A stretch of DNA of 64,000 nt from Dentipellis sp. KUC8613 (lineage: Eukaryota > Basidiomycota > Agaricomycetes > Russulales > Hericiaceae), in the NCBI GenBank assembly GCA_002286715.1, contig NSJX01000009.1, positions 745,966 to 809,965 of the forward strand. Reading direction: 5' to 3'. A program made the translations under genes and the position numbers. This document shows positions 28,867-64,000 of the stretch, piece by piece. Under the pieces are notes generated by a model. That model ran no database searches, was not told the origin of the DNA, and saw nothing but the letters and a program-made list of their open reading frames with translations. The stretch's first letter is position 1; each line of letters begins with the position of its first letter.

Positions 28867-30691
28867 CTACTGCTTCATGAACTTGAGCAGCGCCAGCGCA
28901 TCCTCGCGCGCCTCCCCGCCCTCATTCCACGCCGCATTGAGCGTGTCCGCCATCTTATCCACATTCCTGTCGATCTTCGCGCGCTCCTCCTTGTTGAAGA
29001 ACGCCTTCGTGATCACCTCCGTCGCCTCCTTCGTGATGTCCTCAATCGTGCCCGTCGGCTTGCGATCCGTGCTCGCGCGGTACTCGAGCCCGAACCCACA
29101 GCGCACCTCGCCGAGCTCGTACCCGCACCCGTACACCTGCGACACGAGGATCGACAGCACGGGCTGGTCCGCGAACAGCGGCCAGCAGAGCATCGGCACG
29201 CGCAGGCACAGGCTCTCGAGCGTCCCGTTGATCCCGCAGTGCGAGAGGAACCACCCGACCGCCGCGTGCGCGAGCGTCCACTGCTGCGGCGCCCACGCGG
29301 TGAAGTATGCGCGCTCGCGCGCTTTGCCCGCCGCGGCGAGGTCCGCGGGGAGTGCGCCCTGCGCGGCCTCGCTCATCACCATCACGAAGGGCACGTCGAG
29401 CGTGATGAGCACGCGCAGGACCGCGTACAGCATCTCGATGTCGGCGGGCAGGAGCACCGAGCCGAAGCCGATCTGCACGCCAAGGCGTCATCAGCTATGG
29501 GCGAGCGGAGGGGAGGAGGGAGGAGGGACGCACGTAGAGCACCGACTTCTCGCCCTTCGCCGCGAGGTGGCGGTCGAGGTAGGCCGTGAGGCCCGTCGCG
29601 TCCGCCTGCTCCTGCTCCTTGCGCACGACCTCGGGCGTGCGCGTCGACGTGAGCGGGCCGACCGCGAGCACGTCCGCCGCCTTGGGCTGCTTCTTCAGCC
29701 ACTTGGAGAACTCGGCGAGCCCCAGGCGCTCGAGCGCGTGCGCGGTGCTCGTGACGAGGATGTCGGCGTCGCGGATACCGAAGACCCAGTCGACGACCAT
29801 CGCGACGGGGAGGAGGACGGGTGGCTGTGAGGTGGGGTTAGTGGGGTGGATGCAATGGGAGGTGAGGGGGAGGAGAGCGTACCTCCTGCGGGAAGCCCTC
29901 GTAGTCGGACATCTCTGGGAAGCCCGGGATTTGGATGCGCCTGCCGTTCACATGCGAGAGGTATGCCTGGTCGTGTTGTACTCAGTGAGCTAACGACGTC
30001 AAAGGATACAGAAGGGGATGCGCGGACCTTGCTGTTCGCAGACATGTAGTCGAGGCCCTCGGTCTGCATGATCTCCTGCACCTGCTTCACGTACGCGTCG
30101 GGGTCGTCGCGGATGTAGCGGATGGGCGCCATGCTGCTGAACGAGGGCAGCGCGACGGGGAGCCAGCCCGCGATCTTGACGGGCTTGGTCGCGACCTGGC
30201 GGACGTAGGTGAAGAAGGGGTGGATCATGGACTGCACAACGCGCGCATATGCGTGAGCTCATTCCGCTCTTTACCGCTTGGATGGAAGAGCAACTGACCT
30301 CAAGCAGCGCGAGGTCGGGCTCCTTCTCCGCGATGACCTCGTCGTAGACCTTCTTGAGCGCGTCCATGTAGCTGTCTGCGGGCCAGAACATCGCGATGGG
30401 CGCGGAGACGATCTTGACGCGGACGTGCGCGGCCTCGATGCCCTCGCTGGAGAGCTCCTTCGAGAGCTCCGCCGTCGCTTTTGACACCGCGGCCTCCGCG
30501 ATGATGAGCACGGCGGTGATGTGCGCGTCGAGTGCGAGCAGGCGCGCGACGAACGCGATGATGGGGCGCATGTGGCCTGCGAGACAACAAACATGTTAGC
30601 CCCACTCACTATAGGATGGATCGTGAAGAGGATACACACCCCACTCGTTGGGGGGCACGGCGACGATGTGGTATGCTTTGGCTTCAGACAT
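28867..30691 (-). CDS. eriJ: UDP-glycosyltransferase (504 aa, 6 exons), EriJ-like
   Basis: GT1-family enzyme transferring a sugar from a UDP-sugar to a hydroxyl of a lipophilic acceptor. Exons in coding order: 30691-30640, 30576-30299, 30231-30028, 29966-29883, 29824-29534, 29472-28867. The N-terminal acceptor domain begins VAVPPNEWGHMRP, with likely catalytic H19. The C-terminal donor domain carries the PSPG-type box: WAPQQWTLAH, then FLSHCGINGTLES and PLFADQP. There is no signal peptide or terminal transmembrane helix, so it is probably cytosolic. It is the outermost recognisable gene of the diterpene cluster. In the erinacine pathway the GT1 enzyme EriJ is known, from memory of the literature, to add xylose to the cyathane C-14 oxygen. 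Assignment rests on cluster content and order; donor specificity is not readable. Confidence 0.9.
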
Positions 30692-32244
30692 GGTATGCAG
30701 GCAGGGTCTAGGTGCGGTATTCGGTGGAATCTGCGCGCCCGGCCGGGAGTTCTTATGCGCACGCGTGCCTGCGAACGTGCTGTGCTGCGTGTTGGACGAC
30801 TATGCGTAAAACGGTGATTGGCCGCGCACGTCGTCCCACTGGCATCTCCCATCGCGGCTCGCTGCGCTGCTTACTGATGCCTCCCTTCGCAGCGGGCCCG
30901 GAGGAGGCGGGCTGGTCGCATACTAAGGCGACAAAGCAGCTATTACATCGTGGTCCGTCATGATCTCTGCAGGGACACGCACGCGCCGAGGACGCGTAAA
31001 TTGGTATCATATCAGGCGCATGCTATATGCAGCAGCGCCTGTCTTGACGAAAACCATGACTTCATAGCGCAGGCCTACAAGTCCGGCGAAACTGGATCCC
31101 CTTGCATATAGGTACGCTTCTGAAGCCATGTCGTACTGACAGTGCAGGGAACACAGAACACACGCAGACAATGGAAAGAAAAAGGACTAACACTTCTGCC
31201 AATTGGGCTGGGTTTGCTAAAGGGACATCGCAATCGAGGCGCAGGCGCTACGATGTCCTCGGATGCCGCATATGGCAACGAGCGCCCCTGATGCGATGTT
31301 GCCGGCGCTGGGACCTGGCGTCCGGGTTTGCGCGGGTCACAGATTGCCTCGGCCGCTTGCGAGATGCACGACGTCGACGATCACGGTGGTCTTAGGTATC
31401 TCGATATCGGGCCCTGTTTCCGCCGCGGCCCTGGTCCCCAGCGCTCAGCCTCGGGATCTCGCCGCCCGGGCGGCTGGCGCGCAAGCATTATCTGGCCGTT
31501 AAGCGATATGGATTATTGGGATCAGACAGATCCTGTTTTCCATGTCCAGCCATATATTATTATTATCATTATCGATCCGGGGCGACTGGGGCTGGCATCA
31601 TCGCCGGTGTGCATGGCATGCAAGGCAAGGTACGCACCTCTCCGCCGCGCTGAAGCTGATCTTTGAAATTGGCTCTCGTTATGTTGCTGTTATGTTATTG
31701 TTAGAGACAGACTCTGGATCCCTGGACGCGCGTGCGCCCCGGGTTTATGAGCGGGCGCTCCGGGGGCGTCGCGCTCCGCATGCACAGCGACCAACAGTGA
31801 GTATATGTACGGCATGCGCGATGCAATGCATTGTCGACTGGGCTCGGCTAGATCGTGTTGGGTGTACGAGTACAGCGCCGTGCGTGTCGGTGGTACTGGT
31901 AGGGTCGTTATTGTGTTTTCCGTAAGTCGTCGTCCGATTTGGTTTCGGGATGCAATGTGTACGCCGAGCTGTATCGCACCATGCCCAGATATCATGCCCA
32001 GGAGGCGTAATTGGACTGGAATGCGCCATGCTGTTTTCCTAAAGTGTAAGCATAAGCGTAAGTGTAACTGTCAGTGCATTGTATAACGACCCTGGCGTCC
32101 ACGACTCGCATATGTATGTATATATGCCTTACCCGGCTCCCAGCGGCCGCGGGTGAGGCATATTATGGGCGGCGGGCTGTCGGGGACGTTGACGGACGGC
32201 GATTGCCTTACGTGCGGCATGCCAGTTTGCCTTTCGGTGTCGTG

Positions 32245-32320
32245 TCAGGTAGGCTCTAGCTCTGACGCTGGCTCTGACGCTGGCTCTGGCTCTGGCTCTG
32301 GCTCTAGCTCTGGTATGGAG
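32245..32320. repeat. Short tandem repeat, GGCTCT-type hexamers
   Basis: Runs of GGCTCT and GGCTCTGACGCT-like units in non-coding DNA. Confidence 0.7.
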
Positions 32321-32423
32321 ACGTGCGGGACACGTTTGCGTCCTGCGTTCTATTTTTTTTTTGTGTTCTGTGGAATGGGCCGGTTTTGGGAGTTTGACGG
32401 CATGTGCGCGCGATGTGGCTGGG

Positions 32424-32463
32424 CCGGCGGCGGCGGCGGCGGAGGTGGTGGTGGTGGTGGTGG
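32424..32463. repeat. GGC/GGT trinucleotide repeat
   Basis: About thirteen GGN triplets, first GGC then GGT, on the plus strand. No coding frame containing them is supported. Confidence 0.8.
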
Positions 32464-33291
32464 TACGATTGTACGCTTTCTCCACTGCAGCGAGGGCCGT
32501 GAGCCGATTGCGATAGGGAATTCTCTACTTGTTCTGCATGGTGTTCGTGTAACGCGTTATGGAGAATGTGTTCGTTTTGGGTTTGGGGCTGACGCGGAAG
32601 GTGAAGGCTGGTGTTTGGGCGGGTATGTGGTACGAGGATCGGGCTAGGTGTGAGTGCTGCCTAAGGCTAGTGGTAGTGCGATGTGCTAGGACATGATACG
32701 GTTCGCCAGACTGTTGGAAGAGGAGGGAGCTTAGAGGTGAGTATATGCGCGCATATACGTATACCTGTATTAGAGCTTCTCATATCTTACAACAAATACA
32801 CGGTGACTAGCACATCGATCGCCACCCGAACTCCCATCGATCGCTCTGAACACAAAACATAAAGCGCGGCCTTATCTCAGAGGTATACTCAGACTCGGAC
32901 AGAAGCAATCAAACAACTTGAACTTGCGATGCCAGCCAACACATTTGCTACTTGCTATTCAACGAGTGGGGTGATATGTACGATACGAGAGGTCAAGTCA
33001 AGTCGGGAGTCTACTATCGGCACTCTACTACGTATACGGCATCTACAATTCCTACACTAGACACTAGGCAAACAAGAAAGAAAGAAAGAAAACGACCGAT
33101 CCGAGGCGGAGTCCGTGTAAGAAATGCAATCTAACCATCCGACCACGCGACAACAACACGCGACGCCGACATCATCAGGCCTGAGCAACGCCAACATCAT
33201 CAGGCCTGAGCAACGCCGACATCAGGCTTGAGCGGTGCAAATGCAAAGGCGTAGATGTAGACGTAGACCCGCGCGACGCGACAGCTCAGGC

Positions 33292-35870
33292 TCAGGCCTG
33301 CGACAGCACGAGCGGCATCGACATCTTGCCGTCCACGTGCGGCGAGAGCGTGAGCCCCATCGGCCACGCGATCTTGTCCGCGTGCGCGGACGGCGCGAAG
33401 TGCAGCGCCGCGACGAGCTCGCTGATCAGGATCTCTGTGCGTGCGTTCGTGCGTGCGTGAGCGGTTGTTCATGTGACATGCAACGATGCAGAGGAGGTAG
33501 AGAGGGAGGGGATGGGGAGGATGGGGAGGGAGGGAGAGAGGAAGGGGAAAGAGGGGCTTACTGAGCTCCATCTGGACGTAGCGGTAGCCGAGGCAGTGGC
33601 GTTTGCCGTCGAGGAAGGTCATACTGCACACACACGCGTCAGTCGCATAACCAGACGAAAAATCATACAAAGAGCAGAGAAGAGGGAGGGCGGGGGGACG
33701 CACATGTGCGAGTAGATGCCCGGCATCTTGGTGCTCTTCACCGTCTCGGGCAGCGGCTCCATCCAGCGCTGCGGGCGCCACTCGTCCGCGTCGGGCCCCC
33801 ACACGGCGCGCGACCGGTTCACGCCGACGAGCGACATCGTCACGACGGTGCCCTTGGGCAGCACGAGCTCGTGCAGCGGCGTGCCGTCGCGACCGGTTAT
33901 GGGGAACGCGAGCGGGAGGACGGTGTCTTGGAGCGCCCTGTGTGCGTGCGTGCGTGCGTCAGCGTTAGCGTTATGGCCTACTGGGTGTAAGGGGGAAGGA
34001 GGGAGGGGACGGACATGCGGTCGATGAAGCCGGCAGGGGGGTACCTGTGACAGGGAGTTAACACGGTGAAAGGAACCGAGAGGGGAGCGGGAGGAGAAAC
34101 GCACAGCCGCAGCGTCTCGCGGTACACGGCGTCGAGCCACGGCAGCGCGAGCAGCTTGTCATACGCGATCTCGCCGCCGCCCTCCTCCTTGGCGGCCGTG
34201 ATCTCGTCGCGCAGCGCCGCCTGCACGTCGGCGTGCTCCGAGAGCAGCTGGATCGTGCGCAGGATGGCAGAGGAGGAGGTGTCGGTTGCGGCGAAGAGGA
34301 GCGTGCGGAACTGGTTGGTCGGGAGGGGGTGAGGAGAAGGATGGGATGGGGATTAGTGTATGTATGAATAAGATACTTGCGAGACGTACGTGCGAGGTGG
34401 CTTCTTGCTCCGAGACGCGGTCCGGTCTGTCCGCGAGGACGTGTTCGCTAACTGCACCCCCCGCATCAGCACATCCTCGCATACACAACAACAACAACAA
34501 CAACAACAACAGCAAGAAAAAACACTGACTGATAGCCGTCATAAGATCCTTGCCCATCGACGCGTCGCTGCCGTTGATGATCGCGTTCTTCTTCTCCTGG
34601 AACATCGTCTGCGAGTTGCGCTCGAGCTCCCAGATGAAGTTGCGGATGACCGCGACGAGCGGCGAGGGCACGAGCGTGAGGAGCCACCGGTTGAAGCGCG
34701 GCGTCGAGAGGCTCGCGATGCGCGGCAGGAAGTATTTGACGCCGAGGCGCGCGGCGGGGATCGAGAGCGCCACGCTGCGGGCGGTTAGTAGGCGCGAAGG
34801 ACGGGGATGGGGAGGGAGAGAAGGGAAGGACGTACAAGCCGCCCTTGAGGTCCTCGCCGTACAGGTTCGGCTTCGCGTCGACCTCGAGCGAGTCGAGCGA
34901 GACGCCCATCGCGCCCTGCCCGACGAACTCGAGCGACACGCGCGTGCCCCAGTGGCTCATGTCCATCTGCGCACCGCTCATCAGCCGCCATCCACAACCA
35001 CACACAGGCACACAGAGAGGGGAGAGAGAGGGCGTACCTCGGTCGGGCCGTCCGTGCAGAGCGTTTTGAGCGATTGGACGAACTGGTGTAAGGAGGAAGA
35101 TGGGGTGTTAGTAGGAAGGAGGAGTGGGAGAGAGGGGAGGGAAGGGGCGTACGCGGTGCGTGACCTCGTAGAAGAGCGGCGGCATGTGCTTGAGGTACGA
35201 CGCGCCGAAGATGGGGTTGAGGTACTTGCGCTGGCGGATGTGCTCCGCGCCGTGCGTCGACCCGAGGCCCTTGGTGCCGAGCACCATCTGCAGCATGAGG
35301 TGGATCTCGGGCGGGTCGTCCCAGATGTTCTCGTCCTAGGACAGGTCATATGGTGTTAGATAGGGTGGGTGGGAGGAGGAAGAGGGAAGGCGCACGCGGC
35401 GGCACATGTGGTTGAGCGCGAGCGGGTCGGCGATGTAGACGAGGTCATTGCACTGTGTAGGATGTTAGAAGGGTAGACGATGATAAAGAGGAAGGCGACC
35501 CACGAGAGGCGGCGTAGTGATCCTGCACACGTTTCCGTCTACACACAGCGTCAGCCGTAACCTTACATGCACTCTCGTTCCACATACAGTCCTTGTTAAT
35601 CTCGTCGAAGAACTCCCATCCCTTGTCCGCATCATGCAGCAGCACGTAGTTGCCTAGCGCGCACACCGGTCAGCTGAGCCCCCCGCACACGCACGGATCA
35701 GGCCATGACGTACCGGCCCACGCGCGCGACTCGGGCCCGGGGATGTTGCTGATCTGGTGCTGGATGCGGCGGCGGATGCGCACCCAGACGGCGAGGCAGA
35801 GGACGGAGGCGGCGGCGACGGCCTTGACGACGAGGTCGGGGGTGAGGGGCGGGACTGCGAGCGACGGCAT
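33292..35870 (-). CDS. eriI: Cytochrome P450 monooxygenase (551 aa, 14 exons), EriI-like
   Basis: Exons in coding order: 35870-35714, 35653-35588, 35538-35504, 35452-35396, 35335-35153, 35082-35038, 34966-34836, 34774-34530, 34451-34390, 34310-34105, 34044-34015, 33937-33704, 33623-33562, 33434-33292. A membrane anchor (about residues 12-30) precedes IPGPESRAWAG. The I-helix reads FAATDTSSSA, the ExxR motif is in YRETLRLYPP and the haem loop is FLDGKRHCLGYR. It belongs to a different P450 family from the four at 0-28 kb, with about twice as many introns. It is divergently transcribed from the SDR at 36325. By position and content it matches the first-named P450 of the erinacine cluster, expected to hydroxylate the cyathane scaffold. 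The symbol rests on synteny from memory. Exon 3 to 4 splicing (donor GTGGGT at 35503) is the least certain junction. Confidence 0.87.
34486..34511. repeat. CAA microsatellite inside a P450 intron
   Basis: Uninterrupted CAA triplets on the plus strand, within the intron between coding exons 8 and 9 of the minus-strand P450. Confidence 0.8.
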
Positions 35871-36324: not shown

Positions 36325-37532
36325 ATGTCTGCGAAAGTCGCCATCGTCACCGGAGCCGCGCAGGGCATCGGCCGCGCCATCGCCGTGCGCCTCGCCGCGG
36401 ACGGCTTCGACATCGGCGTGAACGACCTCCCCACCCCCGAGCAGGCAGAGAAGCTCGAGGAGCTCAAGGCCGAGATCGAGAAGCTCGGCCGCAAGGCGAT
36501 CGTCGTCGCCGGCGACGTCTCGCAGGAGCCTGCCGTCGAGAAGATCGTCAAGGACACCGTCGCTGCCTTTGGCGGTCTTGATGTCGTGCGTGCTGTCCTC
36601 TCTCCCGCCTGCGCTCAATAACTGACGCGCCGTACTTAGATGGTCGCGAACGCGGGCACCTGCGAGCTCGCGCCCGTCGTCGCCAGTGCGTCTCCCCCTT
36701 CCATTACTCGAGCTCGCAGCTGACACGAGTGCGCACACCAGCCCCCGTCGAGCAGTGGGACGCGACGCAGGGCGTCAACCTCCGCGGCGTCTTCCTCTGC
36801 TTCAAGCACGCCGGCCAGCAGATGCTCGCCCAGGGAAAAGAGCGCGGCGGACGCCTCATCGGCGGCGCGTCCCTCGGCGGCTTCTCCGGCGTCCCCATGG
36901 GCGGCGCGTACTCCGCCTCCAAGGCCGGCATGCGTGGGCTCACGCATAGTGCCGGTGCGTATTTTGTTTTGGACTGGGCGTATGGCTGGAGGGCTGGCAA
37001 GCTGACTTCTGGTTGTGGATAGCGCGCGAACTCGGGCCGAACGGTATCACCGTCAACTCGTACGCACCTGGTGAGCACCTCTCCCTCCATCCCTGCTGCC
37101 TCTTCTGAGCCGTGTACTAATATGCACTACCACGAACAGGCATCGTCGTCACCCCTCTCAGTTGAGCCCTCTCCCGTCTTCCATCCTCTCCGTAGGATAG
37201 GGTGCCGGTACTGACGCTGCTCGCTAGCACTGCGGAACTTCGGCGCGGAGTTCCTCGAGAGCCAAAAGCCGTCGTGCGCGCTCGGCGATCACGGCACGCC
37301 CGAGGACATCGCCGCGCTCGTCGCGTTCCTCGCGTCCAAGGAGTCGCGCTTCATCACTGGTGCGTGCTGTCTCTCACTTTCTCACTTTGTCTATTGTGTG
37401 AGGCGTGCGTGCTGATGAGTCGGTTTCGTATAGGACAAACTGTAAGCAAATAATTCGCATCTAGTCCCCCGTAGTAGACGATACTGACTTGCTCTGCAGA
37501 TCATGATCGACGGCGGCAGATTGTGCATCTGA
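36325..37532 (+). CDS. eriH: Short-chain dehydrogenase/reductase (252 aa, 8 exons), EriH-like
   Basis: Classical SDR acting on an alcohol/ketone pair with NAD(P)(H). Exons: 36325-36582, 36640-36685, 36742-36954, 37023-37070, 37140-37160, 37228-37359, 37434-37441, 37500-37532. The cofactor loop is TGAAQGIG (residues 9-16) and the structural motif NAG is at 90-92. Catalytic residues are N114, S145, Y158 and K162 (YSASK). The C-terminus is GQTIMIDGG, encoded across an 8-nt exon; without it the frame fails and the conserved GQT is lost. The sequence style is near acetoin/diacetyl reductases, but the cluster context points to oxidation of a cyathane alcohol. The erinacine cluster has two SDRs (EriB, EriH); position next to the P450 suggests EriH. 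Cytosolic, with no targeting signal seen. Confidence 0.88.
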
Positions 37533-42108: not shown

Positions 42109-43092
42109 ATGTCCTTCATCGCTAGGCGCGTCGCCCGCGAGGTCGACGTCTTCATGGGCTTCTCCTGGCGAGACTGGTCCACGACGCTCATCCCCGGCTC
42201 CCTCTTCGCCTTTGGCGCACTGCGCACGCTCCCGCTCGCCGACGCGGTCCGCAGCTACCTCTTCCTCGTCACCTGGCTCACGCCGTACATCTACTTCTTC
42301 AACCTCTCGAACCAGATCACCGGCGTCGACGAGGACAAGATCAACAAGCCCGACCGGCCGATCCCCTCGGGCAAGGTGACGCTCGCGGGCGCGCAGCGCC
42401 GCTGGGCCGCCGCGCTCTCCGTGTTCGTGGGCGTCGCCGCGTACGCGCCCGCGCTCATGCCCGCGACGCTCTGCTGGATCCTCACCATCGCGTTCCTCAT
42501 CCTCACCCCCGGCGGCGACCACTGGTTCGGGAAGAACAACGTCGCGATGGCCACCGGCACCTGGGCGCTCCTCCAGGCGTCGTGGGTCGCGATCGCCCCG
42601 ACCACGCCCAAGGTCGAGGTGTACATCTACGCCGTGTCTGCCTGGGCGGGCCTCATCACGCACATCCAGGACCTCCGCGACCTCAAGGGCGACATTGCCG
42701 TCGGGCGCTACACGCTCCCCATCGCGTTCGGCGACCGCGGCAGCAGGCTCATTATCTCGTTCGTGTTCATCCCCATGGCGGTGTACGTGCTGCACCTCGC
42801 GGGCATCATGCGCCTCGCGCCCGTCACGCTCAGCGTGCTGCACGTCATCCTCATGTACCGCGTGCTCCGCATGGGCGGCCCGCGCTACGACCACAAGACG
42901 TACATGGTGAGTGCACTTGGCACTTGTACTTGTGGAGTACGAGGGTGGCTGATTGATCCTCGCGTGGCGCAGTTCTATACGTACATATTCTGCCTGATCC
43001 TCGCGTTCACCGCGACGGAGGGCATGGACCTCAAGGTGCTCGGCGGGCTGATCGGGGCGCTGGATTTTGGGGGCATGAAGGTCTCGGTTTAG
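42109..43092 (+). CDS. eriG: UbiA-family membrane prenyltransferase / diterpene cyclase (305 aa after splicing), EriG-like
   Basis: Integral membrane protein with about eight or nine hydrophobic helices. The first metal-binding motif is NQITGVDEDKINKPDRP (residues 68-84). The second is DLRDLKGD (187-194). The first differs from the canonical NDxxDxxxD of UbiA prenyltransferases: Gln and Gly stand where two acidic residues are usual, while D74, E75, D76 and D82 remain. The frame is open throughout, but 42907-42972 is a 66-nt intron (GTGAGT...GCAG) without a stop. Removing its 22 residues joins KTYM to FYTYIF within a helix. UbiA-type cyclases include fumagillin Fma-TC and EriG, which converts GGPP to a cyathadiene. 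A GGPP synthase lies 1.6 kb downstream on the same strand, so the diterpene cyclase reading is favoured over a quinone or haem prenyltransferase. Confidence 0.9.
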   Translation: MSFIARRVAREVDVFMGFSWRDWSTTLIPGSLFAFGALRTLPLADAVRSYLFLVTWLTPYIYFFNLSNQITGVDEDKINKPDRPIPSGKVTLAGAQRRWAAALSVFVGVAAYAPALMPATLCWILTIAFLILTPGGDHWFGKNNVAMATGTWALLQASWVAIAPTTPKVEVYIYAVSAWAGLITHIQDLRDLKGDIAVGRYTLPIAFGDRGSRLIISFVFIPMAVYVLHLAGIMRLAPVTLSVLHVILMYRVLRMGGPRYDHKTYMVSALGTCTCGVRGWLIDPRVAQFYTYIFCLILAFTATEGMDLKVLGGLIGALDFGGMKVSV

Positions 43093-44660: not shown

Positions 44661-46029
44661 ATGGCCATCTCTAACGGAACCACTTTCGCTGCGAAGCCTT
44701 ACATCCCTGGTGAGGACCTCTGGTCCGAGGAGGACGAGACGGTAAATAATACCTTGTTTTGTTGCCTCCTCGAAATGGGATACTGACTTGGCGATCCATG
44801 TGTAGGCCGTCACGGAGCCGTACACCTACGTCGCGTCCATGCCGGGCAAGGACATCCGCGGCCGCTTCATCGAGGCCGTCAACTACTGGCTGCACATTCA
44901 GCCCGAGCCGCTCGCCGTCATCTGCAAGATCGTCGCGATGCTCCACAATGCCAGCCTCCTGTACGTGTACCCGTCTTCACAATACGCAGCGAAACAGACC
45001 GCTAATGCGCTTGGTATTGCGCAGGATTGACGACATCGAGGACAACTCGCAGCTGCGCCGCGGCCAGCCTGTCGCGCATAGGATCTACGGCCTCCCGCAG
45101 GCGATCAACAGCGCGAACTATGTGTACTTCCTTGCGCTGAAGGAGGCGGTGGCGCTCAAGCCGTACGAGCTTCCTGGATACGATGTCCTCGACATCATCC
45201 TCCGTAAGATAAATTTCTTGAAGGCTGGATGGGACGACACGCTGACCGCTGTATAACAGACGAACTTGTAAACCTCCACCGAGGCCAGGGTCTCGAGCTC
45301 GTCTGGCGCGACTCGTTGCGCTGCCCGTCAGAGGACCAGTACATTGACATGGTCAACAAGAGTGAGCATCATCCCGTCTTCGCATCCGGCAATCGCTGAC
45401 GATGTATCGCAGAGACTGGCGGCCTCTTCCGTCTCGCAGTGAAGCTCATGACCGCCTGCGCACCCGAGCCTGTTCAGATGTACGCGTCCCCCCTCATCGA
45501 TTCCCCGCACGGCAACTAATGCCTTCGTCCCTATAGCGATTACGTCCCGCTGTTCAACCTCTTCGGCGTGTTCTTCCAGATCCGTGATGACTTGATGAAC
45601 CTCGACGACAACGAGGTAACTACCTTTCCCCCCTTCACACAATTTCCCCCGCTGATATAGCGGTTCGATCGCAGTACGAGAAGAACAAGGGCTTCGCTGA
45701 GGACCTCACGGAGGGCAAGTGGTCGTTCCCCGTCATCCACGGCGTCACCGCCGAGCAGGACAACAACGTCCTCACCAGTCAGCTTCCTCTCCCATTCCTA
45801 CCACACGACGCACACTGACAGCCTGCCGGTAGATGTCCTGCAGAAGCGCCCGACGACGCCGACGCTCAAGCTGCACGCGATCAACCACCTGCGCAACCGC
45901 ACCGGCTCGTTCGCGTACACCGAGGGCATCCTCGACACGCTCGAGACGCGCATCCGCACCGAGATCGACGCGCTCGGCGGCAACGACCGGCTGCTCGTCC
46001 TCGTCAACCTGCTCTCCGTGCGCAAGTAG
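44661..46029 (+). CDS. eriE: Geranylgeranyl diphosphate synthase (320 aa, 8 exons), EriE-like
   Basis: Trans-prenyltransferase condensing isopentenyl units to C20 GGPP. Exons: 44661-44741, 44806-44960, 45025-45203, 45260-45361, 45413-45479, 45537-45615, 45675-45777, 45833-46029. The first aspartate-rich motif is [12 protein letters not shown] (from 81). The second is DDLMN at 212-216, followed by [16 protein letters not shown] and [15 protein letters not shown] and the closing helices agree with fungal GGPP synthases. Length and motifs identify the C20 enzyme rather than FPP synthase. An extra copy beside a terpene cyclase is typical of dedicated diterpene clusters, where it feeds GGPP to the cyclase. 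In the erinacine cluster this is EriE. It may instead be the general GGPP synthase; a search for a second copy elsewhere in the genome would decide. Confidence 0.95.
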
Positions 46030-52000: not shown

Positions 52001-55000
52001 TGCTAGTCCCGTAGGTCATCCATTGACAATCTCCCGTCGCAATCCGATAACTGACTCTTGAATCGTCAGAATGACGGGTTGCTCTCAGTTTTCTTACGAA
52101 TTACCATGGCCAGCCATGTCTTTCTGCGACCAAGTGACAAAGCAGCAACTGACCACTGCACGCGTCATCCCATCATTTTGGAGCCTCCCTCCCCCCTTCA
52201 CAATGAACCACGTGAAAAAGCGCCAGCTCGCCCACAAAGCAAATTCCCTTCCCCAACCATCGCGCCCGACCCATCACACCATCACCGACGGCATCCAAAA
52301 CGGCACTCCCTTCCCCCTCCTCGCTAGACGGGTCCTGTCGACTGTCATCGTCTAACAGCCGTTAGCCGATCCCTCTCGATGGAGGGCGCCCACACGTCCG
52401 CTTCTCCCTGCGATCCACATCTGCCTCCCTCTGCACGTCTAACGGGCCATATCCACGGCAGCGGCACGCGTAAGAACGGGTCCGCTAGCCGTTTATTTAC
52501 AGCTAGATCAGATCCCGCCGCTAGCGCCTCGAGATTCAGGAGTGGACACGGATTTGCTGGATCGATACTTGCGTCGGAGCCGGCGGGCGTGGTTCTCGAC
52601 TGGATCTGCCCGCCTTCACGTCTAACCACGGTGGCGGGGTTTTGTTTCACGTTCGATCCCGAGATCAGATCGTGACGGCGGGGGATCTACATGAATCTCT
52701 GCGAGGGAGCGGATTGGTAGTGCGCGTTGCTGATTTTGGGTCGGGCTGTTGGGCTGAGGATGGTGAGGACATAGCTCTTGGCTTGAGTGGTCTCTTGATG
52801 GTGAGCTATCAATACGGATATCCTTCCCCTCCCTATGCTGATGAGCTACAGCAGTAACGCATTTTCGTGTCCGTTCTCTCCGAGATCGGATCTCGACGCA
52901 CCGAATGAACATCCTCAAATATACCTGCATTTCCCGGATTTGCATCGGAGCCGCTAGCAGCCTGAAACAACGTCTGTCTACGTACGCCTCGCTTCGTCAG
53001 CTCGCTGCGTCACTCAGGTTACTTCCCACAACATCTCGCCATTCTGTTGCACCGCATACTTGAATTCATTGGGATTCTTCTCCTTTCGACGACTCTGGCG
53101 GCTGCAACAATCTGTCTATCTATTGCACAGGACGCATGACGCGACGGGTGGACGAGGATAGCACGCGGCCTAGAATGCAACGGCTCACACCTGACGGTTG
53201 TAATTTCGATAACGACAAGCACGCCCTTCAAGTTTGCTTTGCCGCTACGGCTTGTCGGTCGCGGGGAGAGGCACATCTATGGGCCTGTCAGCTGTCACCC
53301 GTCGGCTGTGCGTTCGGGGCTGGTGGGGTCTGGATCACTACCACCACGTTGACAGGTGCCGGTGGTTTCTGATTCTGCTGTCATCGTCGGCATCGACTAT
53401 TCTTGTATCTCGTTGTTCGGGTAAGAAACCCATTTTCGGTGGGATAGGACTGTTTGCTCGTGGACCGCAGAGGTCGATTGACAACTCGCTCAGAGGGTAG
53501 TGTTCACTGCCTGATAGCAAGCGGGAACGCAAGAGGAAATCTAAAGCCATCCCTACAAACATCTCTGATCTCAGACTCGCCACTCGCCACTCGACTGTCG
53601 GCCGCGCCGCGCGGCCTGGCATCTCTTCCTGGGCTCTATTTTGGAATCGTTGGGTCTCAGCCAACTGGGGCGTTCGCGACGACTTGGTGACTGTGACTGT
53701 TTGGTGTCTTTCGCGGAAGAGTGGACGAATGGGGTGGATTGTGCACGGCCTCGATGCGCTCAGGTATGTCTATGTATATCCCACATCAGCTTGATATCCT
53801 CGTTCATTGGTCACTTCACCTTCCTAGTAGATGTGTATATGTAGACATCGATTCCTGCCGCACCTACGCGTCCTGCGGCCGGCTGCTAGCTGCTCAATCG
53901 GCGAGACGTGACTGGCAAGTTCATATCCCTCCCCCTACCTGTGTCAAGAAGAAGACAGCAGCTATCACGTATCTCTGACGTCGTCCTTCCCCGCTACAGT
54001 ATGTGGACATCGATGTGCTATGTACATTTGCCGAGCCGACGCGTCCCGCGGCCGGCTCAGGCTGCTGGATGGGCGAGTCGTGAGTAGCAGTTCCTGTTCC
54101 TTCCCCTCCTGCGACTAGTCTTTGACATCGTCGTTCACCTTTGTCGTTTCCTTTGCAGGATATATGCGTACAACGAAGTCCCTCGATGCGCCATATACGT
54201 TTGCCGAATCTACGCGTCCCACGGCTTCCTGCTCAACCTCAATGGCCGAGCTGTGAGTGGCAGTTGCCGCCTCTTCCCTATGGCTAGTCTTCGACGTTGT
54301 CATTGACCTTTGTCGTCTTCTTTGCAGGATATATGCTCGTCACTTGGTTCCTCGATGCACAACGTACACCTGCCGAACCTACGCGTCCCGCGGCCGGCTG
54401 CTATCTGCTCGGCGGGCGAGACATAGCTGGTAATTGATCCCCCCTTGCGGCTAGTCTTTGACGTCGTCGTTCACGTCTGTTGCCCCCTTTACAGGATATA
54501 TGCGTACAACGTAGCCCCTCAATGCACCACGTACACCTGCCGCACCTACGCGTTCCGCGGCTTCCTTCCAGCCAACGCGTGACTGGCATCTTCCCTTCGA
54601 CAAGTCAGTGACGTCTTCCCCTCATCCGTCACTCCGTCCCCCTTCACGTTCACAGTAGAGGTACACAGATACTCATACCTCGACGTCACGGTGCCGCACC
54701 TACGCGTCCCGCGGCCGGCTGCTCAGCGTCGGTGGGCGGAGCGTGACGGGCAATGGGTGGAGCGTGACGGGCAAGTGCTTCCCCCCGATTCCCCCTGGTG
54801 CTGCCTGCTGCTTGGATTGGAAAGCAGACAGCGGCTGTGACATCCGCGTTGGCGTTGGCGTTGGCGTTCGTTGTTCAGGTAGCCTTCGAAGGTGATAAGT
54901 ATATGTATACTCGTCTATCGACGCGCTATATACGTCTGCCGAATGTACGCGTCCTGCGGCCGGCTGTTATCTGCTCGACAGGCGGAACTGGCAGGAACAC

Positions 55001-56989: not shown

Positions 56990-59900
56990 ATGGCCGAGAA
57001 AGACGACAAGCGCGTCTCAGAGAGCTCCCTCCCCTCGTCGCGGGAGACCCACGCGGAGGTCGTCGCCCTCGCGCGCACCGTCTCCCAGCACAATGACGGC
57101 CCCCGCGAGGCAGACTCTGACGTCGAGAACCCGTTTCTCGGCACAGACGACCCCCTCCTCGACCCCACCTCCGGCAAGTTCGACGCCGTCGCATGGACAA
57201 AGGCCATCCTCCAGATCCAGGCGACCGATCCCGACGGCTATCCGCGCCAGACCGCCGCCGTCAGCTTCGAGAATTTGAACGTGTACGGCTACGGCAAGCC
57301 GACCGACCACCAGAAAACCGTCGGCAACTACCTCCTCGACATCCCCGGCGTCGTGCGCAACATGTTCGGCCGCCAGGGCCAGCGCATCGATATCCTCCGC
57401 AACTTTGACGGGTGCGTGCACCGCTTGCCGTTTTGGTGATATGGCGTTTCTGATTCGGGTTGCAGGCTCGTGCGCGAGTCGGAGATGCTCGTCGTCCTCG
57501 GCCGCCCTGGCTCCGGCTGCACGACCCTGCTCAAGACCATTGCAGGCGAAACCCACGGTCTCTGGATCACTGAAAATTCGCACATCAATTACCAAGGTAA
57601 GCGCCCGCACGCCGCTCGTCCCGCCGCTGACCGCGCTGCACACAGGTATCTCCTTCGACCGCATGCACAAGACGTTCCGCGGCGAGGTCGTCTACAACGC
57701 CGAGAACGACGTGCACTTCCCCAACATGGTGAGCATGCGAATCTCCGCGCGCAGTGCCTTATCGCGCCACCGCTGACCCGCCCGTTGCAAATTCGAATCC
57801 GCGCGCGCTCTAGACCGTCGGCCAGACGCTCAGCTTCGCGGCCCGCGCCCGCACGCCCCGCACGCGCCTCCCCGGCGTCTCGCGCGAGCGCTGGGCCGAG
57901 CACATGAAGGACGTCGTCATGGCCATCTATGGCCTCTCCCACACCGTCAACACCAAGGTCGGCAACGACTTTATCCGCGGCGTGTCCGGCGGCGAGCGCA
58001 AGCGCGTCTCCATTGCGGAGGTCGCGCTGAGTGGCAGCCCGCTCCAGTGCTGGGACAACTCGACCCGTGGGTTGGACTCGGCGACCGCGCTCGAGTTTGT
58101 CAAGTCGCTGAAGTTGTCCAGCAAGTATGCAGGCGCGACGGCGATCATCGCTATCTACCAGGCCTCGCAGGCCATCTACGATGTGCGCCACCCCCTCTCT
58201 TCCTCTTTTCACTAGCTAAAGCCGGGGTGTAGCTCTTCGACAAGGTGACCCTGCTGTACGAGGGCCAGCAGATCTACTTTGGGCGCGCGGACCGCGCAAA
58301 GCAGTACTTCATCGACATGGGCTTCCATTACCCGCCCCGCCAGACCACCGCCGACTTCCTCACCTCCATCACGAACCCGGGCGAGTGCCAGCCGCGGCCG
58401 GGCTTCGAGGGCCGCGTGCCGCGCACCGCGGACGAGTTCGCGCGCGCGTGGCGCGACAGCGCCGACCGCGCCGAGCTCCTGCGCGAGATCGCCTCTTTCA
58501 ATGCCGAGTTCCCCGAGGACGGCGCCCAGCTCGACCGCTTCCGCGCGGCGCGCAAGCGCGTGCAGGCCAAGGGCTCGCAGGCGCCGTACACGATCTCGAC
58601 GCCGATGCAGATCCGCCTGTGCCTGCGCCGCGCGCAGCAGCGTTTCGTCGCGGACACGAGCAACTTCCTCACGAACGTCATCGGCAACTTTATTCTGGCG
58701 CTGATTATCTCGAGCATCTTCTACGACCTCCCGGCGAACACGCAGACGTTCTACTCGCGCGGCGCGCTGCTGTTCTTTGCGATATTGATGAACGCGTTCG
58801 CGTCGTCCCTCGAGATTCTGCAGATTTACGAGCAGCGCCCGATTGTGGAGAAGCATCGCAGGATGGCGCTGTATCATCCGTTCAGCGATGCGATTGCCTC
58901 GGTGATATGTGATTTGCCCGGCAAGATTGCGGCGTCGCTTGCGTTCAATTTGGTGCTGTACTTCATGACGAACCTCCGCCGCACCCCCGGCGCGTTCTTC
59001 ACGTTCTACCTCTTCTCCTTCCTGTGCGTCCTCCCCCCTCCCTTCTTTCCTCGCTCGCGTGCTGACAATATGGTGTGGTTGTGGCGCACAGGTGCATTCT
59101 GGTGATGAGCATGATCTTCCGCACGATCGGCGCGACCTCGCGCACGATCTCGCAGGCCATGGCGCCCTCCTCCGTGATCCTGCTCGCGCTCGTCATCTTC
59201 ACCGGCTTCTCGATCCCCGTGCGCGACATGCTCGGCTGGTCCCGCTGGATCAACTACATCAACCCGATCGGATACGCGTTCGAGACGCTCATGCTGAACG
59301 AGTTCGCCGGCCGCGAGTTCCCCTGCGCGAACTTCATCCCCACCGGCCCCGGGTACGATAGCGTGCCCGCGACGAGCCGCGTGTGCTCGACCGCCGGCGC
59401 CGTGTTTGGCGCGAATGTGGTAGAAGGCACGGCCTACCTTGCGACGGCGTATAATTACGTCGACGCGCATAGATGGCGGAATTTTGGGATTTTGTGGGCG
59501 TTTATCATTTTCTTCGCCGCGACGTATTTGCTTGCGACGGAGTTCGTGAGCGCGTCGAAGAGCAAGGGCGAGGTGCTCGTGTTCCGCCGCGGGCATGTCC
59601 CCGGCCAGGAGAAGCGCGCGGCGGGCGTGAGGTGCTCCGACGTGGAGACGGGCTCGAATGGCACGAAGACGGACATCGAGATGGAGCCCGTCAAGAAGGA
59701 GGACACGGTCGCGAATATACAGAGACAGGTCGCCACGTTCCATTGGGAGGATGTGGTGTATGATATCAAGATTAAGGGCCAGCCGAGACGGTTGTTGGAT
59801 CATGTCGATGGCTGGGTGAGGCCGGGCACGTTGACGGCGCTCATGGGTGCTTCGGGTGCTGGCAAGGTGCGCTTCTCTCTTCCCCCATTCTCTTGTTTCT

Positions 59901-62097
59901 GCGGTTGTTGACGTGGGAATTTGCAGACGACACTCCTGGACACGCTCGCGAACCGCGTCACGATGGGCGTGGTCACCGGCCGCATGCTCGTCGACGGCCA
60001 CGAGCGCGACAGCTCGTTCCAGCGCAACACCGGCTACGTGCAGCAGCAGGACCTCCACCTCAACACGTCCACCGTCCGCGAGGCGCTCATGTTCAGCGCG
60101 CGCCTCCGCCAGGCGCACTCGATCCCCGACTCGGAGAAGGCGGCGTACGTCGAGGAGGTCATCCACTTGCTCGAGATGGAGGTGCGCTGTCTTCTTTCCT
60201 TTTGCGCATCCGTGCGGTGCTAATGGGGCACTTGGGTGGCAGAAATATGCGGACGCGGTTGTTGGTGTCCCCGGCGAAGGCCTCAACGTCGAGCAGCGCA
60301 AGCGGCTCACCATCGGCGTCGAGCTCGTCGCCAAGCCCGGGCTGCTGCTCTTCCTCGACGAGCCCACATCCGGCCTCGACAGCCAGACCGCCTGGTCCAT
60401 CTGCGCCCTCCTCCGCAAGCTCGCGAACAATGGCCAGGCCATCCTCTGCACCATCCACCAGCCGTCCGCGATCCTCTTCCAGTCCTTCGACCGCCTGCTC
60501 CTGCTCCAGAAGGGCGGCCAGACCGTCTACTACGGCGACATCGGCGAGAACTCGCGCGTGCTCACGTCCTACTTCGAGCGCCAGGGCGCGGACCCGTGCC
60601 CGCCCGCGGCGAACCCCGCGGAATGGATGCTCTCGGTCATCGGTGCCGCCCCCGGCGCGGTCGCGAAGCGCGACTACGGCCAGGCGTGGCGCGAGAGCGA
60701 GGAGCTGCAGGCGGTCAAGGCGGAGCTCGCGCGCATGCGCGAGAACCCGAAGGAGAGCGCGCCGGACACGAATGGCGAGGCCCATGCGGAGTATGCGGCG
60801 CCGTTTGGCGTGCAGCTGTATTATGTCACGTTCCGCTTCTTCCAGCAGCTGTATCGCACCCCGTCGTACATCGTGAGTCTCCCCCCCCTCTCTCTCTCTC
60901 CCTCTGGATGCTGATAGGGGATGGGGATGTAGTATAGCAAGCTGTTCCTCGTCGGCGCGAGCAATCTGCTTATTGGGTTCTCGTTCTTCAAGGCGGACAA
61001 CACGCTCCAGGGCCTCCAGGACCAGATGTACTCCGTGTTTATGGGCCTGACCGTCTTTGGAAACCTCGTCAACCAGATCATGCCGCACTTTGTCACGCAC
61101 CGCGCGCTGTATGAGGTCCGCGAGCGCCCGAGCAAGGCGTACTCGTGGTATGTGTTTATGATGTCGAACTTGATCGGAGAGTGAGTCCCCCTTTGTTTTC
61201 GCTGGTTGTATTGGCTGGAGCTGACGGTTGGTGTGTTTGTGTAGGCTTCCTGTGCGTTGATTCGTGGATGTGAAAGTGGAGATTGGTGCTGACGAGATTT
61301 TGTTTGTTTGTAGTGGAACACCCTCGCTGGCATGATCCTCTTCTTCACGTGGTACTACCCCATTGGTCTCTACCGCAACGCCGAGTGGACGCACGCCGTC
61401 ACCGAGCGCGGCGGTCTCATGTTCCTCCTCGTACGTACCCCCTCCCTCCCCTTGCGCATAATGGACTATGTCTGACGGCCTTTCGTAGATCTGGGAATTC
61501 ATGCTCTACACGTCGACCTTCGCGCACATGCTCATCGCGGGCGTGGACTCGGACGTCACAGGCGGCAGCATCGCCAGTTTGCTGTTCAGTTTGACCTTCC
61601 TGTTCTGTGGTGTGCTCGCTGGTCCCAGCGGGCCGAACGCGTTCCCGCGCTTCTGGGTGAGTGCCCCTCCTGAGTTCTAGGGGGAATGAAAATTGCTGAC
61701 GCGGCGCACGCAGATCTTCATGTACCGCCTCTCGCCGTTCACCTACCTCGTCGACTCGATGGTCTCTGTCGGCGTCGCCAACGCGCCCGCACACTGCTCC
61801 GACATCGAGGTGCGCCACTTCGAGCCGCCGTCCGGCCAGACGTGCGGCCAGTACCTCGCGCAGTACCTCTCGTCGAACCCCGGCGAGATCTTCAACCCCA
61901 ACGCGACCTCGGACTGCCAGTTCTGCGAGATCACGAGCACGAACTCGTTCCTCGCGGGCATCAATGCGAATTATGAGCACCGCTGGCGCAATTTTGGCTT
62001 CTTGTGGGCGTTCATTCTGTTTAATATGGCGATGGCGGTGTTCTTCTATTGGCTGGCGCGCGTGCCGAAGGGCAGTCGCGTCAAGAAGGAGGCGTAG
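56990..62097 (+). CDS. eriD: PDR-type (ABCG) ABC transporter (1459 aa, 13 exons), EriD-like
   Basis: Full-length plasma-membrane efflux pump with layout NBD-TMD-NBD-TMD. Exons: 56990-57411, 57466-57596, 57646-57728, 57814-58182, 58233-59023, 59092-59866, 59927-60181, 60243-60872, 60933-61180, 61245-61251, 61314-61430, 61489-61656, 61714-62097. NBD1 has the degenerate Walker [12 protein letters not shown], signature [10 protein letters not shown] and Walker [16 protein letters not shown]2 has canonical Walker A GASGAGKTT, signature [10 protein letters not shown] and Walker [14 protein letters not shown]. This asymmetry is standard for PDR proteins. The C-terminal [11 protein letters not shown] block is the PDR-CDR signature. 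Exon 10 has only 7 nt and completes the conserved ELPWN. Expected role in the cluster: export of, and self-protection from, the diterpenoid glycoside. Confidence 0.95.
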
Positions 62098-62776
62098 GTT
62101 CGTGCAGGGGAAGGGAAGCGATAGACGGTTACATGGACTTCGTCTCGCTTTTGCTATGAGTTTTGGCAGCGAACCGCGCGTGGTTGCTTGCGCGGTATCG
62201 TGATTGACATGTTCTTCGTCGTTTTTGTTTCGTGGTGGTCGTAGTGGTTTTTGTCTAGTCGCGCATATCGCATATCCACATCAGAGTCTTGTCGTATACC
62301 CATCCTTATTATAGAATTGAATTGCAGTCTTTTTGACGCAGCTAGTACTTTCGTGCATGCGAGAACTTGGTCGATGGGCCCAGGGTAGTGTGTCTGGGTT
62401 GCCGTTGGGTTTGGATTTGAAGGGACTTCAAGTTTTCCTCGAAAGGTCTGAAATGTGCATGTGAAGTTTTGAAATTTCGAGTTGGGGCACACGTTTAGAA
62501 TCGTGCTTCGCTCGCAGTCGAGTGACCGAAGGTCGAAGACCAGTCTCACCGTTCAGCGATTGCAGCAGCGCCAGACTTCTCGCGACCCAACCCCAGTTCA
62601 CACGCACGCACGCACGCACGCTTCAGATGATCCACACAATAAATATTCCATTACCAAAGCACAAATAAGAGCTGTGTCACTACTCTACTCTATTCTACAC
62701 TCCCGACCGTACTCTATACACCGACCACACCCAACCCAACCCCCTCTTACACTGAAAAACAAGAGCGTGTACACGC
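62098..62776. other. Convergent 3' region
   Basis: The gap between the stop of the ABC transporter (plus) and the stop of the last P450 (minus). No gene seen. A short ACGC run lies near 62601-62620. Confidence 0.5.
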
Positions 62777-64000
62777 TCACTCAGCATCCACCAGCCCTTC
62801 CAGCCGACTCACGCCCGGCACGCGCTCCACAATCCGACACTCAAACGGCAGCGGGTGCCGTGCCATCTCCTGCCCCCACGCCGCCTCGGGCACCCTCGCC
62901 TTGCCCTTCCCTGTGATCCCCTTTCCCCCTATCCCACTCCCACCAACACCCGCGGCGCCCTCCTCAGCGGGCAAAAACTCGAACGCGGCGAGCATGCGCG
63001 CGATCGCGGTCCAGACGGAGTTGTCCGCGACGTGCGCGCCGGGGCAGCGCCGCCGGCCGAAGCCGAAGACGACGTCGCGCGGGTCGCGCGGGACGGCGCC
63101 GCGCTGGCCCTCCGCGTCGGCGAGGTGCGGAAGGAAGCGGGTGGGGTTGAAGGAGGTGGGCGCGGGGCAGGCGGTGAGGATTGCGCTGGGCGGGCGGGCG
63201 TGTGCGGGCATGGACGGGCGAGTGCGGGCATGGACGGGCGAGTGGGAGTGGGAGTGTGGGCGAGCGAGTGGAAGGAGGGGGGGATAGGTGTGGTGGGGGG
63301 GAAAGGAAGGAGGAAGGGGGAGGAAGGAGAAGTCAGCGGAGAGATGGAGGGAGGGAAGGAAAGCGGGGCGTACTGCAGGTTCGCGATGATGCTCGTGCCC
63401 TTGGGGATGAAGTAGCCGTCGTACGTGTCGTCCTGGATGACCGTGTGCGGGATCGCGATGCTCAGCGGGCAGGCCCATCTGTGCGTCTCGGCATCAGCAC
63501 GAACCACCCCTCAAATTTATTGTGGAGCGGACGGAGTAACGCCGCGACCAGGACAAAGTCGGGAGGGACGAAGCGAGTGGAAAAGATGGGGACAGCGGAG
63601 AAGACAAGACGCACCGATACACCTCCTTCACCAACGCCTCCAAGTAGGGCAGCCGCGCGCGGTCATCGAGTGACGGCACGGTGCCGCGCGGGAGCACGGC
63701 ATCGAGCTCGGCGTGGGCGGCGCGCTGCACGGAGGGCGTGCGCACCATGGCGAGGATGAACGAGTTCAGGGTGGCCATTGTCTGTTGTTCCGCTGTTAGT
63801 GTTTCTTAATTCGGGGGAAGGGGGGAGGGGACGTACGGTTTCCTGGCCGGCTGATTGTGCGCGTGGGCAGGGATAGGAGGAAGAGTGGGTAAGCGGGAAT
63901 TTGAAATAAGGGAGGGAGAAAGAGGGACGCACCACCATACAGGATCCCCGCGAGCCCGCGCACGTCCGCCTCGTCCTCCGCCGAGATGTGCTCGAGCCCG
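62777..64000 (-). CDS. eriC: Cytochrome P450 monooxygenase, 3' part only (EriC-like)
   Basis: The gene runs off the right edge, so the N-terminal half is not in the window. Visible exons in coding order: from 64000 to 63933 (partial), 63850-63837 (14 nt), 63781-63615, 63478-63374, 63185-62777. The I-helix is assembled across three exons as AGQETTMATL. The ExxR motif is in EALVKEVYR. The meander reads SFNPTRFLP and the haem loop FGFGRRRCPG. A Gly-rich insertion (about GVGGSGIGGKG) sits near the C-terminus. It is a third P450 type in the window, different from both the left-hand paralogs and the P450 at 33-36 kb. As neighbour of the transporter it fits the position of EriC, a cyathane hydroxylase, by synteny from memory. 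Further cluster genes (EriB, EriA) would lie beyond the window. Confidence 0.85.

What the first reader, a model, noticed from the sequence alone, without database searches (positions are those of the whole stretch)
28867..64000. Colinear erinacine-type (cyathane xyloside) gene cluster
The order UGT, P450, SDR, UbiA-type cyclase, GGPP synthase, PDR transporter, P450 provides every class of activity needed for a glycosylated diterpene. Read right to left from the edge, it matches the lettering of the Hericium eri cluster as I recall it: C P450, D ABC, E GGPPS, G UbiA cyclase, H SDR, I P450, J UGT. The families are seen in the sequence. The identity with eri is recalled and inferred. If the organism is not Hericium, this would be a new carrier of the pathway.
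Basis: partly seen in the sequence, partly recalled or inferred. Interest (0 to 1): 0.9.

Follow-up and report, generated by a model that had tools for sequence, protein, structure and literature searches.

The report
Cyathane-xyloside gene cluster in Dentipellis
This stretch of a wood-decay fungus (Dentipellis) carries, in the same order as lion's mane, the genes that lion's mane uses to build erinacine-type sugar-bearing diterpenes; it is a further, nearly complete copy of a known pathway rather than a new kind of pathway.

Summary
In detail: UGT, P450, SDR, UbiA cyclase, GGPPS and PDR transporter lie intact at 28.9-62.1 kb; the edge P450 continues past the window, followed by a third P450 (L009). 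Three gene models equal Dentipellis sp. KUC8613 proteins exactly, so the genome is that fungus or a near-identical strain. The UGT is 71% identical to Hericium EriJ (41/44 in the sugar-donor motif). The neighbouring P450 is 74% identical to a Hericium alpestre P450 numbered next to H. alpestre's EriJ. Order fits Hericium (A-C-D-E-G-H-I-J); no EriB or EriF counterpart lies in its slot. The cyclase is already in print as 'DenTC3', reported to give a diterpene in yeast (PMC8594250, a review), and Dentipellis fragilis makes cyathane xylosides (PMC9405216). So: a new member of a known kind. Newer leads: EriJ-type UGTs were found only in fungi whose genus or species is known to make cyathane xylosides, plus Rickenella mellea; and Bondarzewia and Rickenella versions are more alike than their different orders would suggest, a hint of horizontal transfer (against it: a Rickenella cyclase gave nothing detectable in yeast). 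EriG, EriI, EriC, EriA, EriH, EriE and EriD were not compared directly.

The parts
28867..30691 (-). EriJ-type UDP-glycosyltransferase, 6 exons, 504 aa
   Evidence: model identical to P0121 Dentipellis sp. KUC8613; 71% to ERIJ_HERER P0123; donor (PSPG-like) motif 41 of 44 identical to EriJ
33292..35870 (-). EriI-type cytochrome P450 (predicted C-14 hydroxylase), 14 exons, 551 aa
   Evidence: 100% to P0128; 86% to Dentipellis fragilis EVG20_g8434; 74% over 386 aa to Hericium alpestre EWM64_g7641; EriI itself not in the listing
36325..37532 (+). EriH-position short-chain dehydrogenase, 8 exons, 253 aa (TGAAQGIG and YSASK seen in the sequence)
   Evidence: PF13561 199.2 bits, model; orthology with EriH not measured
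42109..43092 (+). EriG-position UbiA-type diterpene cyclase (DenTC3 of the literature), 2 exons, 305 aa
   Evidence: identical to P0001 = DENSPDRAFT_713581; motifs NQITGVDED and DLKGD; reported as giving a diterpenoid in yeast (PMC8594250)
44661..46029 (+). EriE-position GGPP synthase, 8 exons, 320 aa (DDIED, DDLMN seen in the sequence)
   Evidence: PF00348 217.9 bits; exons; second, more distant GGPPS elsewhere on the contig; orthology with EriE not measured
56990..62097 (+). EriD-position PDR-type ABC transporter, 13 exons, 1459 aa
   Evidence: two ABC and two ABC2 stretches, PDR_CDR (on an earlier 1446-aa model); open 1459-aa model with 13 exons; orthology with EriD not measured
62777..64000 (-). 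EriC-position cytochrome P450, 3' part (gene continues to L009:1285, equivalent 65285), 10 exons, 524 aa in all
   Evidence: PF00067 194.7 bits; exons; orthology with EriC not measured

Best explanation
An erinacine/striatal-type cyathane-xyloside biosynthetic cluster of Dentipellis. The dedicated GGPP synthase makes GGPP; the UbiA-type membrane cyclase folds it to a cyathane hydrocarbon (cyatha-3,12-diene by analogy with EriG); the P450 beside the UGT hydroxylates C-14 (as EriI), and the two P450s at the right end hydroxylate C-15 and C-11 (as EriC and EriA); the SDR adjusts an alcohol or ketone; the UGT attaches D-xylose from UDP-xylose to the C-14 hydroxyl (as EriJ); the PDR pump exports the product. 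An O-acyltransferase 4.6 kb further on may supply the C-11 acetylation that EriL provides in Hericium. Shown here: gene families, open frames, UGT and P450 kinship to Hericium genes, order. Reported in print: diterpenoid formation by this cyclase in yeast. Inferred: cyathane skeleton, each oxidation site, the SDR's role, xylose as the sugar, export, acetylation.
For: UGT 71% to EriJ, with 7 proteins at E<=1e-3 among the 7998 candidates scored. The UGT has no other match in this genome. P450 74% to Hericium alpestre EWM64_g7641, whose number follows EriJ-like EWM64_g7640 on a contig of the same length. UbiA 68% to the Cyathus africanus diterpene cyclase, 65% to EriF, motifs intact. DenTC3 = protein 713581 at scaffold_9:787690-789069, matching C161:788074-789057. 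Gene order agrees with H. rajendrae gene numbers g9579, g9580, g9585, g9586, g9587 (PMC10608310). Dentipellis fragilis makes dentifragilins A-H, striatal D and laxitextine A (PMC9405216).
Against: No EriB-like SDR in the 0.57 kb between the two right-hand P450s and no second UbiA between GGPPS and cyclase. The identity of DenTC3's product was not read. EriG, EriI, EriC, EriA, EriH, EriE and EriD were not compared directly. No expression or metabolite data for this strain. An 11 kb stretch with no gene recognised separates GGPPS from the transporter (10 of 10 open frames tested there have no Pfam match). In the trees the window cyclase groups firmly only with Dentipellis copies.
Confidence: 0.9

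Rival explanations
1. A UbiA-diterpene glycoside cluster of the same stock whose cyclase makes a different skeleton, so that the product is not a cyathane.
For: EriG was not available for comparison, and apart from its own record the window cyclase is 65-72% identical to its best named relatives. It groups with two Dentipellis UbiA copies on long branches (100/99), so function in this clade may drift.
Against: Cyathane xylosides are known from the genus. The EriJ-type UGT, whose Hericium form acts on 14-hydroxy-cyathanes (PMC10830979), is kept at 71%. The cyclase motifs are intact.
Confidence: 0.06
2. An intact-looking but silent cluster: orthologous to eri, but not expressed or not completed in this strain (no EriB in its slot, EriM not identified).
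For: EriB and EriF are not in their slots; EriM and EriL orthologues were not identified by sequence. No transcript data.
Against: All eight genes are open from ATG to stop, including long multi-exon ones. The related species D. fragilis makes the compounds.
Confidence: 0.03
3. Chance neighbours: common secondary-metabolism families that happen to lie together.
For: P450s are numerous in this genome (94 exon matches to the edge P450), and SDRs and PDR pumps are common families in general.
Against: The UGT and UbiA are specific, not generic. UbiA and UGT share a contig (judged by equal contig length) in 4 of the 4 genomes, Dentipellis included, whose UGT is on a contig over 50 kb.
Confidence: 0.01

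Closest known systems
eri (erinacine) cluster of Hericium erinaceus, H. rajendrae and H. coralloides
   Same: UGT 71% to EriJ; P450 74% to the H. alpestre P450 numbered beside its EriJ; same gene classes, and order C-D-E-G-H-I-J with a further P450 in the A position
   Different: No EriB counterpart between the A- and C-position P450s, no EriF between E and G; an acyltransferase lies 4.6 kb beyond the A-position P450, whereas EriL is described as an extra-cluster gene in Hericium (PMC12843870, passage). Spacing was not compared, as no Hericium DNA was held.
col cluster of Cyathus olla (PMC11186289)
   Same: transporter, cyclase, GGPPS, P450s and SDRs of the same kinds; C. olla makes cyathanes
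   Different: as lettered in that paper's Table 3 the order is rearranged (transporter-G-E-I-H-C-B-A), and C. olla is reported to have no EriJ homologue and no glycosylated cyathanes
DenTC3, UbiA-type diterpene cyclase (PMC8594250, citing Li et al. 2019)
   Same: it is the same gene as 42109-43092: protein id 713581 and matching scaffold position
   Different: the review (section 8 read) treats the cyclase alone and not the cluster; the product structure is in a figure that is not held, and Li et al. 2019 was not seen

Membership tests
eri-type cyathane-xyloside cluster | UbiA-type cyclase with NxxxG/AxxxD and DxxxD motifs | tested here: met
   NQITGVDED at 68, DLKGD at 191; 68% over 298 aa to the C. 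africanus diterpene cyclase. EriG itself was not available.
eri-type cyathane-xyloside cluster | EriJ-type glycosyltransferase | tested here: met
   71% over 503 aa to ERIJ_HERER, donor motif 41 of 44
eri-type cyathane-xyloside cluster | EriI-type C-14 P450 beside the UGT | tested here: met
   by surrogate: 74% over 386 aa to H. alpestre EWM64_g7641, number next to EriJ-like g7640. EriI itself did not appear in the listing.
eri-type cyathane-xyloside cluster | dedicated GGPP synthase in the cluster | tested here: met
   PF00348 217.9 bits; a second GGPPS, 49-68% alike exon by exon, elsewhere on the contig. Orthology to EriE not measured.
eri-type cyathane-xyloside cluster | EriC and EriA P450s | tested here: inconclusive
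   two more P450s in the right places, but the search with the three-P450 alignment returned no relative of these two above 39% identity
eri-type cyathane-xyloside cluster | SDR EriH and ABC transporter EriD | tested here: inconclusive
   families and positions fit; identity to EriH and EriD not measured
eri-type cyathane-xyloside cluster | gene order as in Hericium | tested here: met
   compared with gene numbers in PMC10608310 and with Her1A5908/5910/5912 in PMC8594250 and PMC11969743. One number, g9677 for the GGPPS, breaks the H. rajendrae run as printed. No Hericium DNA was aligned.
eri-type cyathane-xyloside cluster | EriB and EriF inside the cluster | tested here: not met
   0.57 kb between the A- and C-position P450s; tblastn with EriF finds only the one cyclase in 104 kb. 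I do not treat them as defining: EriF lacks the first cyclase motif; that EriB acts late is inferred. EriB was not sought elsewhere in the genome.
eri-type cyathane-xyloside cluster | product is a cyathane bearing xylose at C-14 | not testable with these tools
   no metabolite data for this strain; Dentipellis fragilis makes such compounds

The most novel reading that the evidence does not exclude
The xyloside form of the cyathane cluster has passed between orders of mushrooms: Rickenella mellea (Hymenochaetales) carries a UbiA-UGT pair closer to that of Bondarzewia (Russulales) than Bondarzewia's is to Dentipellis in its own order. If so, R. mellea is an undescribed producer of cyathane xylosides, and presence of an EriJ-type UGT predicts xylosides across basidiomycetes.
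Probability: 0.33. Interest if true: 0.55.

Novelty: new member of a known kind. Interest (0 to 1): 0.4.

Why it matters
It gives the likely gene set for the dentifragilin/striatal/erinacine chemistry of Dentipellis and links a yeast-tested cyclase (DenTC3) to its likely tailoring genes. It offers EriJ and EriI-type homologues, and by position EriC and EriA counterparts, for combinatorial biosynthesis of erinacines. Comparing carriers turns 'which mushrooms make xylosylated cyathanes' into a testable genomic prediction. The field would not be surprised that a Hericium relative has the cluster.

Tried and rejected
Rejected: (1) the eri genes lie elsewhere in this genome. The UGT has no other match; the next UbiA matches are a tandem pair at C1:2119188 and 2121424, 65% and 64%, and none of the UGT, EriI-type P450, GGPPS or C-position P450 searches lists a hit on C1 within 100 kb of it (only the best candidates are scored there, and part of the flank could not be read). 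(2) Agaricales-Hericiaceae transfer from the P450 tree: with an outgroup, Cyathus grouped with Hericiaceae (100/100), but without it the Agaricales rows are one side of a branch (77/80), so this is not claimed. (3) An early reading of 12-28 kb as empty was wrong: the codon-based predictor missed a P450 array there. I therefore tested open frames in the two gaps inside the cluster with Pfam: 10 of 10 in 46-57 kb and 6 of 6 in 38-44.5 kb had no match at E<=0.01 (a choice of the longer frames). (4) My first count of nine MBOAT_2 genes was wrong; regrouping the 15 matches gives twelve (chance figure redone).

Led nowhere: direct comparison with EriG (not among the 120 of 168 hits shown). The three-P450 alignment search mostly returned relatives of its first row, so EriC and EriA were not reached. 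PMC8463280 (EriL and EriM biochemistry) is not held. ARAGORN found no tRNA in L009, although tRNA-like stretches are visible by eye.

Papers: PMC12843870, PMC11186289, PMC11969743, PMC9405216, PMC10830979, PMC10608310, PMC11044139, PMC8594250 and PMC11909596 were seen as passages by term search; in addition PMC11969743 section 14 and PMC8594250 section 8 were read in full; other titles were seen as listings with abstract openings only. Li et al. 2019 was not seen. Not-in-print statements rest on the 10 searches in one open-access library.
Full report
WHAT IS THERE. The window is G000:C161:745966-809965 of a 34.1 Mb assembly. Gene models were built with a small codon/splice-site program and then corrected by hand. 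Left to right: UGT 28867-30691 (-), P450 33292-35870 (-), SDR 36325-37532 (+), UbiA cyclase 42109-43092 (+), GGPP synthase 44661-46029 (+), PDR transporter 56990-62097 (+), P450 62777 to the edge (-). In the next 10 kb (L009) the edge P450 starts at the equivalent of 65285, and a third P450 runs 65859-68473 (+). All eight match their families over the Pfam cut-offs. In the gaps inside the cluster, 16 of 16 longer open frames tested have no Pfam match.

WHOSE GENOME. The UbiA and UGT models equal annotated proteins of Dentipellis sp. KUC8613 letter for letter (P0001, P0121), and the first P450 matches P0128 over its whole length: 3 of 3 proteins that could be compared. PMC8594250 lists protein 713581 ('DenTC3') at scaffold_9:787690-789069; the window's cyclase is at C161:788074-789057. 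The contig length differs slightly (857677 here, 861260 in the protein database), so the assemblies are not letter-identical as wholes.

IS IT ERI. The UGT is 71% identical over 503 residues to ERIJ_HERER, 72% to a Bondarzewia mesenterica protein, 69% to Cyathus striatus and 66% to Rickenella mellea. Only 7 proteins reached E<=1e-3 among the 7998 best candidates that were scored; they include its own record and P0127, which matches over only 22% of the query. The donor motif shares 41 of 44 residues with EriJ. The P450 beside it is 86% identical to Dentipellis fragilis EVG20_g8434 and 74% to Hericium alpestre EWM64_g7641; the H. alpestre EriJ-like protein is EWM64_g7640 on a contig of the same length, so the I-J neighbourhood appears shared with Hericium. 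The cyclase has the motifs NQITGVDED and DLKGD, is 68% identical to the Cyathus africanus diterpene cyclase and 65% to EriF. The second test, eri genes elsewhere in the genome, came out in favour of the window: the UGT has no other match, and the next best UbiA genes are a tandem pair on C1 at 65% and 64% with no cluster partner matched within 100 kb. EriI, EriC, EriA, EriH, EriE and EriD were not compared: the last protein search, an alignment of three P450s, returned close relatives of its first row only.

ORDER. In H. rajendrae the paper's gene numbers are g9579 (a post-modifying protein), g9580 (P450 on the methyl at C-12), g9585 (cyclase), g9586 (C-14 P450) and g9587 (xylosyltransferase); the GGPPS number as printed, g9677, does not fit the run (PMC10608310). 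In H. erinaceus, P450s Her1A5908 and 5910 and GGPPS Her1A5912 = eriE fit eriA, eriC and eriE lettered by position; that equation is my inference. The window, read right to left from beyond its edge, gives A-C-D-E-G-H-I-J. Cyathus olla, as lettered in its paper, has the same kinds of genes in another order and is reported to lack EriJ and glycosylated cyathanes. Not at their slots: EriB (only 0.57 kb between the A- and C-position P450s) and EriF (tblastn with EriF finds only the one cyclase in 104 kb). EriF lacks the first cyclase motif, so its absence costs nothing obvious. EriB was not sought elsewhere, as its sequence was not at hand.

HOW IT MOST LIKELY WORKS. By analogy with the reconstituted eri pathway (passages of PMC12843870): GGPPS to GGPP; UbiA cyclase to cyatha-3,12-diene; C-14, C-15 and C-11 hydroxylation by the three P450s; acetylation; xylosylation; export. 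PMC8594250 states that DenTC3 was functionally expressed in yeast and that the four working genes gave three diterpenoids; the structures are in a figure that is not held. EriJ also takes UDP-glucose and UDP-GlcNAc (PMC10830979), so xylose here is inferred. Dentipellis fragilis makes eight dentifragilins, striatal D and laxitextine A, all cyathane xylosides (PMC9405216). An intact MBOAT_2 acyltransferase of 382 aa (equivalent 73078-74339, minus strand; PF13813 83.5 bits) lies 4.6 kb beyond the A-position P450 and could do the job of EriL. The genome search lists 15 MBOAT_2 matches, which I group into twelve genes, so one falling within 10 kb of a 40 kb cluster by chance has a probability of about 0.02, a post-hoc estimate. 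That EriL's relative ple2 is of this family is recalled, not tested.

WHO ELSE HAS IT. By equal contig lengths: UbiA with UGT in Dentipellis, Bondarzewia mesenterica (gene numbers g4624/g4625), Cyathus striatus and Rickenella mellea, which is 4 of the 4 genomes whose UGT lies on a contig over 50 kb. UbiA with the EriI-type P450 but no protein among the 7: Galerina marginata, Collybia nuda, Dendrothele bispora and Gymnopilus dilepis. No close EriI-type P450 was listed for Bondarzewia or Rickenella, which is unexplained. Xyloside chemistry is reported for Hericium, Cyathus, Laxitextum incrustatum and Dentipellis fragilis (PMC10830979; C. striatus named there) and for Bondarzewia mesenterica (erinacine P, PMC11044139). 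For Rickenella mellea one search gave two papers; one of them, PMC8594250, lists its UbiA proteins 782838 (RicTC3, my P0003), 857243 (RicTC4, P0005) and 845642 among genes outside the four that gave products in yeast, which counts against a working Rickenella cyclase or at least against those gene models. In the UbiA tree the window groups with the two C1-type Dentipellis copies (100/99) and, less firmly, with EriF (87/91) in the 42-row tree; the link to EriF is lost in a 16-row tree. Bondarzewia and Rickenella are 87% identical in UbiA and 78% in UGT, against 69% and 73% for Bondarzewia and Dentipellis of the same order. Holding the Russulales rows together is rejected for the UGT (p-AU 0.009) but not for UbiA (0.067), and the group was named after seeing the tree. 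Transfer between orders is therefore a lead, not a result; duplication with loss is not excluded.

VERDICT. A real, intact, eri-type cluster in Dentipellis; the cyclase and the genus chemistry were already known, and the assembled cluster was not seen in print in the 10 searches listed in Tried and rejected.

Noticed in passing
window 413-2232, 21779-23425, 24609-25307, 25998-27874 (+), and L012: An array of related P450 genes or fragments (62-88% alike in the C-terminal half, 35-46% to the C-position P450) lies directly left of the cluster; completeness not worked out.
   Followed up: partly
L010, equivalent window 75276 to about 77369 (-), with shorter pieces near 79.4-80.5 and 84.9-86.4 kb: GMC oxidoreductase gene (PF05199, PF00732; 5' end not resolved) and apparent relatives beyond the acyltransferase; could include an oxidase for the C-15 alcohol step, or be unrelated aryl-alcohol-oxidase genes.
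   Followed up: no
G000:C1:2119188-2122209 (L005, L006): Tandem pair of UbiA cyclase-like genes, 64-65% to the window cyclase, motifs kept (P0009 and P0011), on long branches; long-branched duplicates also appear in Cyathus striatus, a pattern that recalls EriF beside EriG.
   Followed up: partly
G000:C150 about 505-568 kb: Several exon matches at 36-67% to the C-position P450, many with stop codons in the reading frame: a second group of relatives, partly decayed or with introns read through.
   Followed up: no
Bondarzewia mesenterica EW146_g6869 (P0127): Gene model with a partial EriJ-type match (57% over 22% of the query) and another Pfam domain: possibly a second, partial UGT copy.
   Followed up: no
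window 5002-7434 (-): Trifunctional tryptophan biosynthesis gene (GATase, IGPS, PRAI) marks ordinary chromosome left of part of the P450 array.
   Followed up: yes
window 54102-54561: Tandem repeat of a 169-base unit, 2.7 copies, inside the 11 kb stretch between GGPPS and transporter.
   Followed up: no
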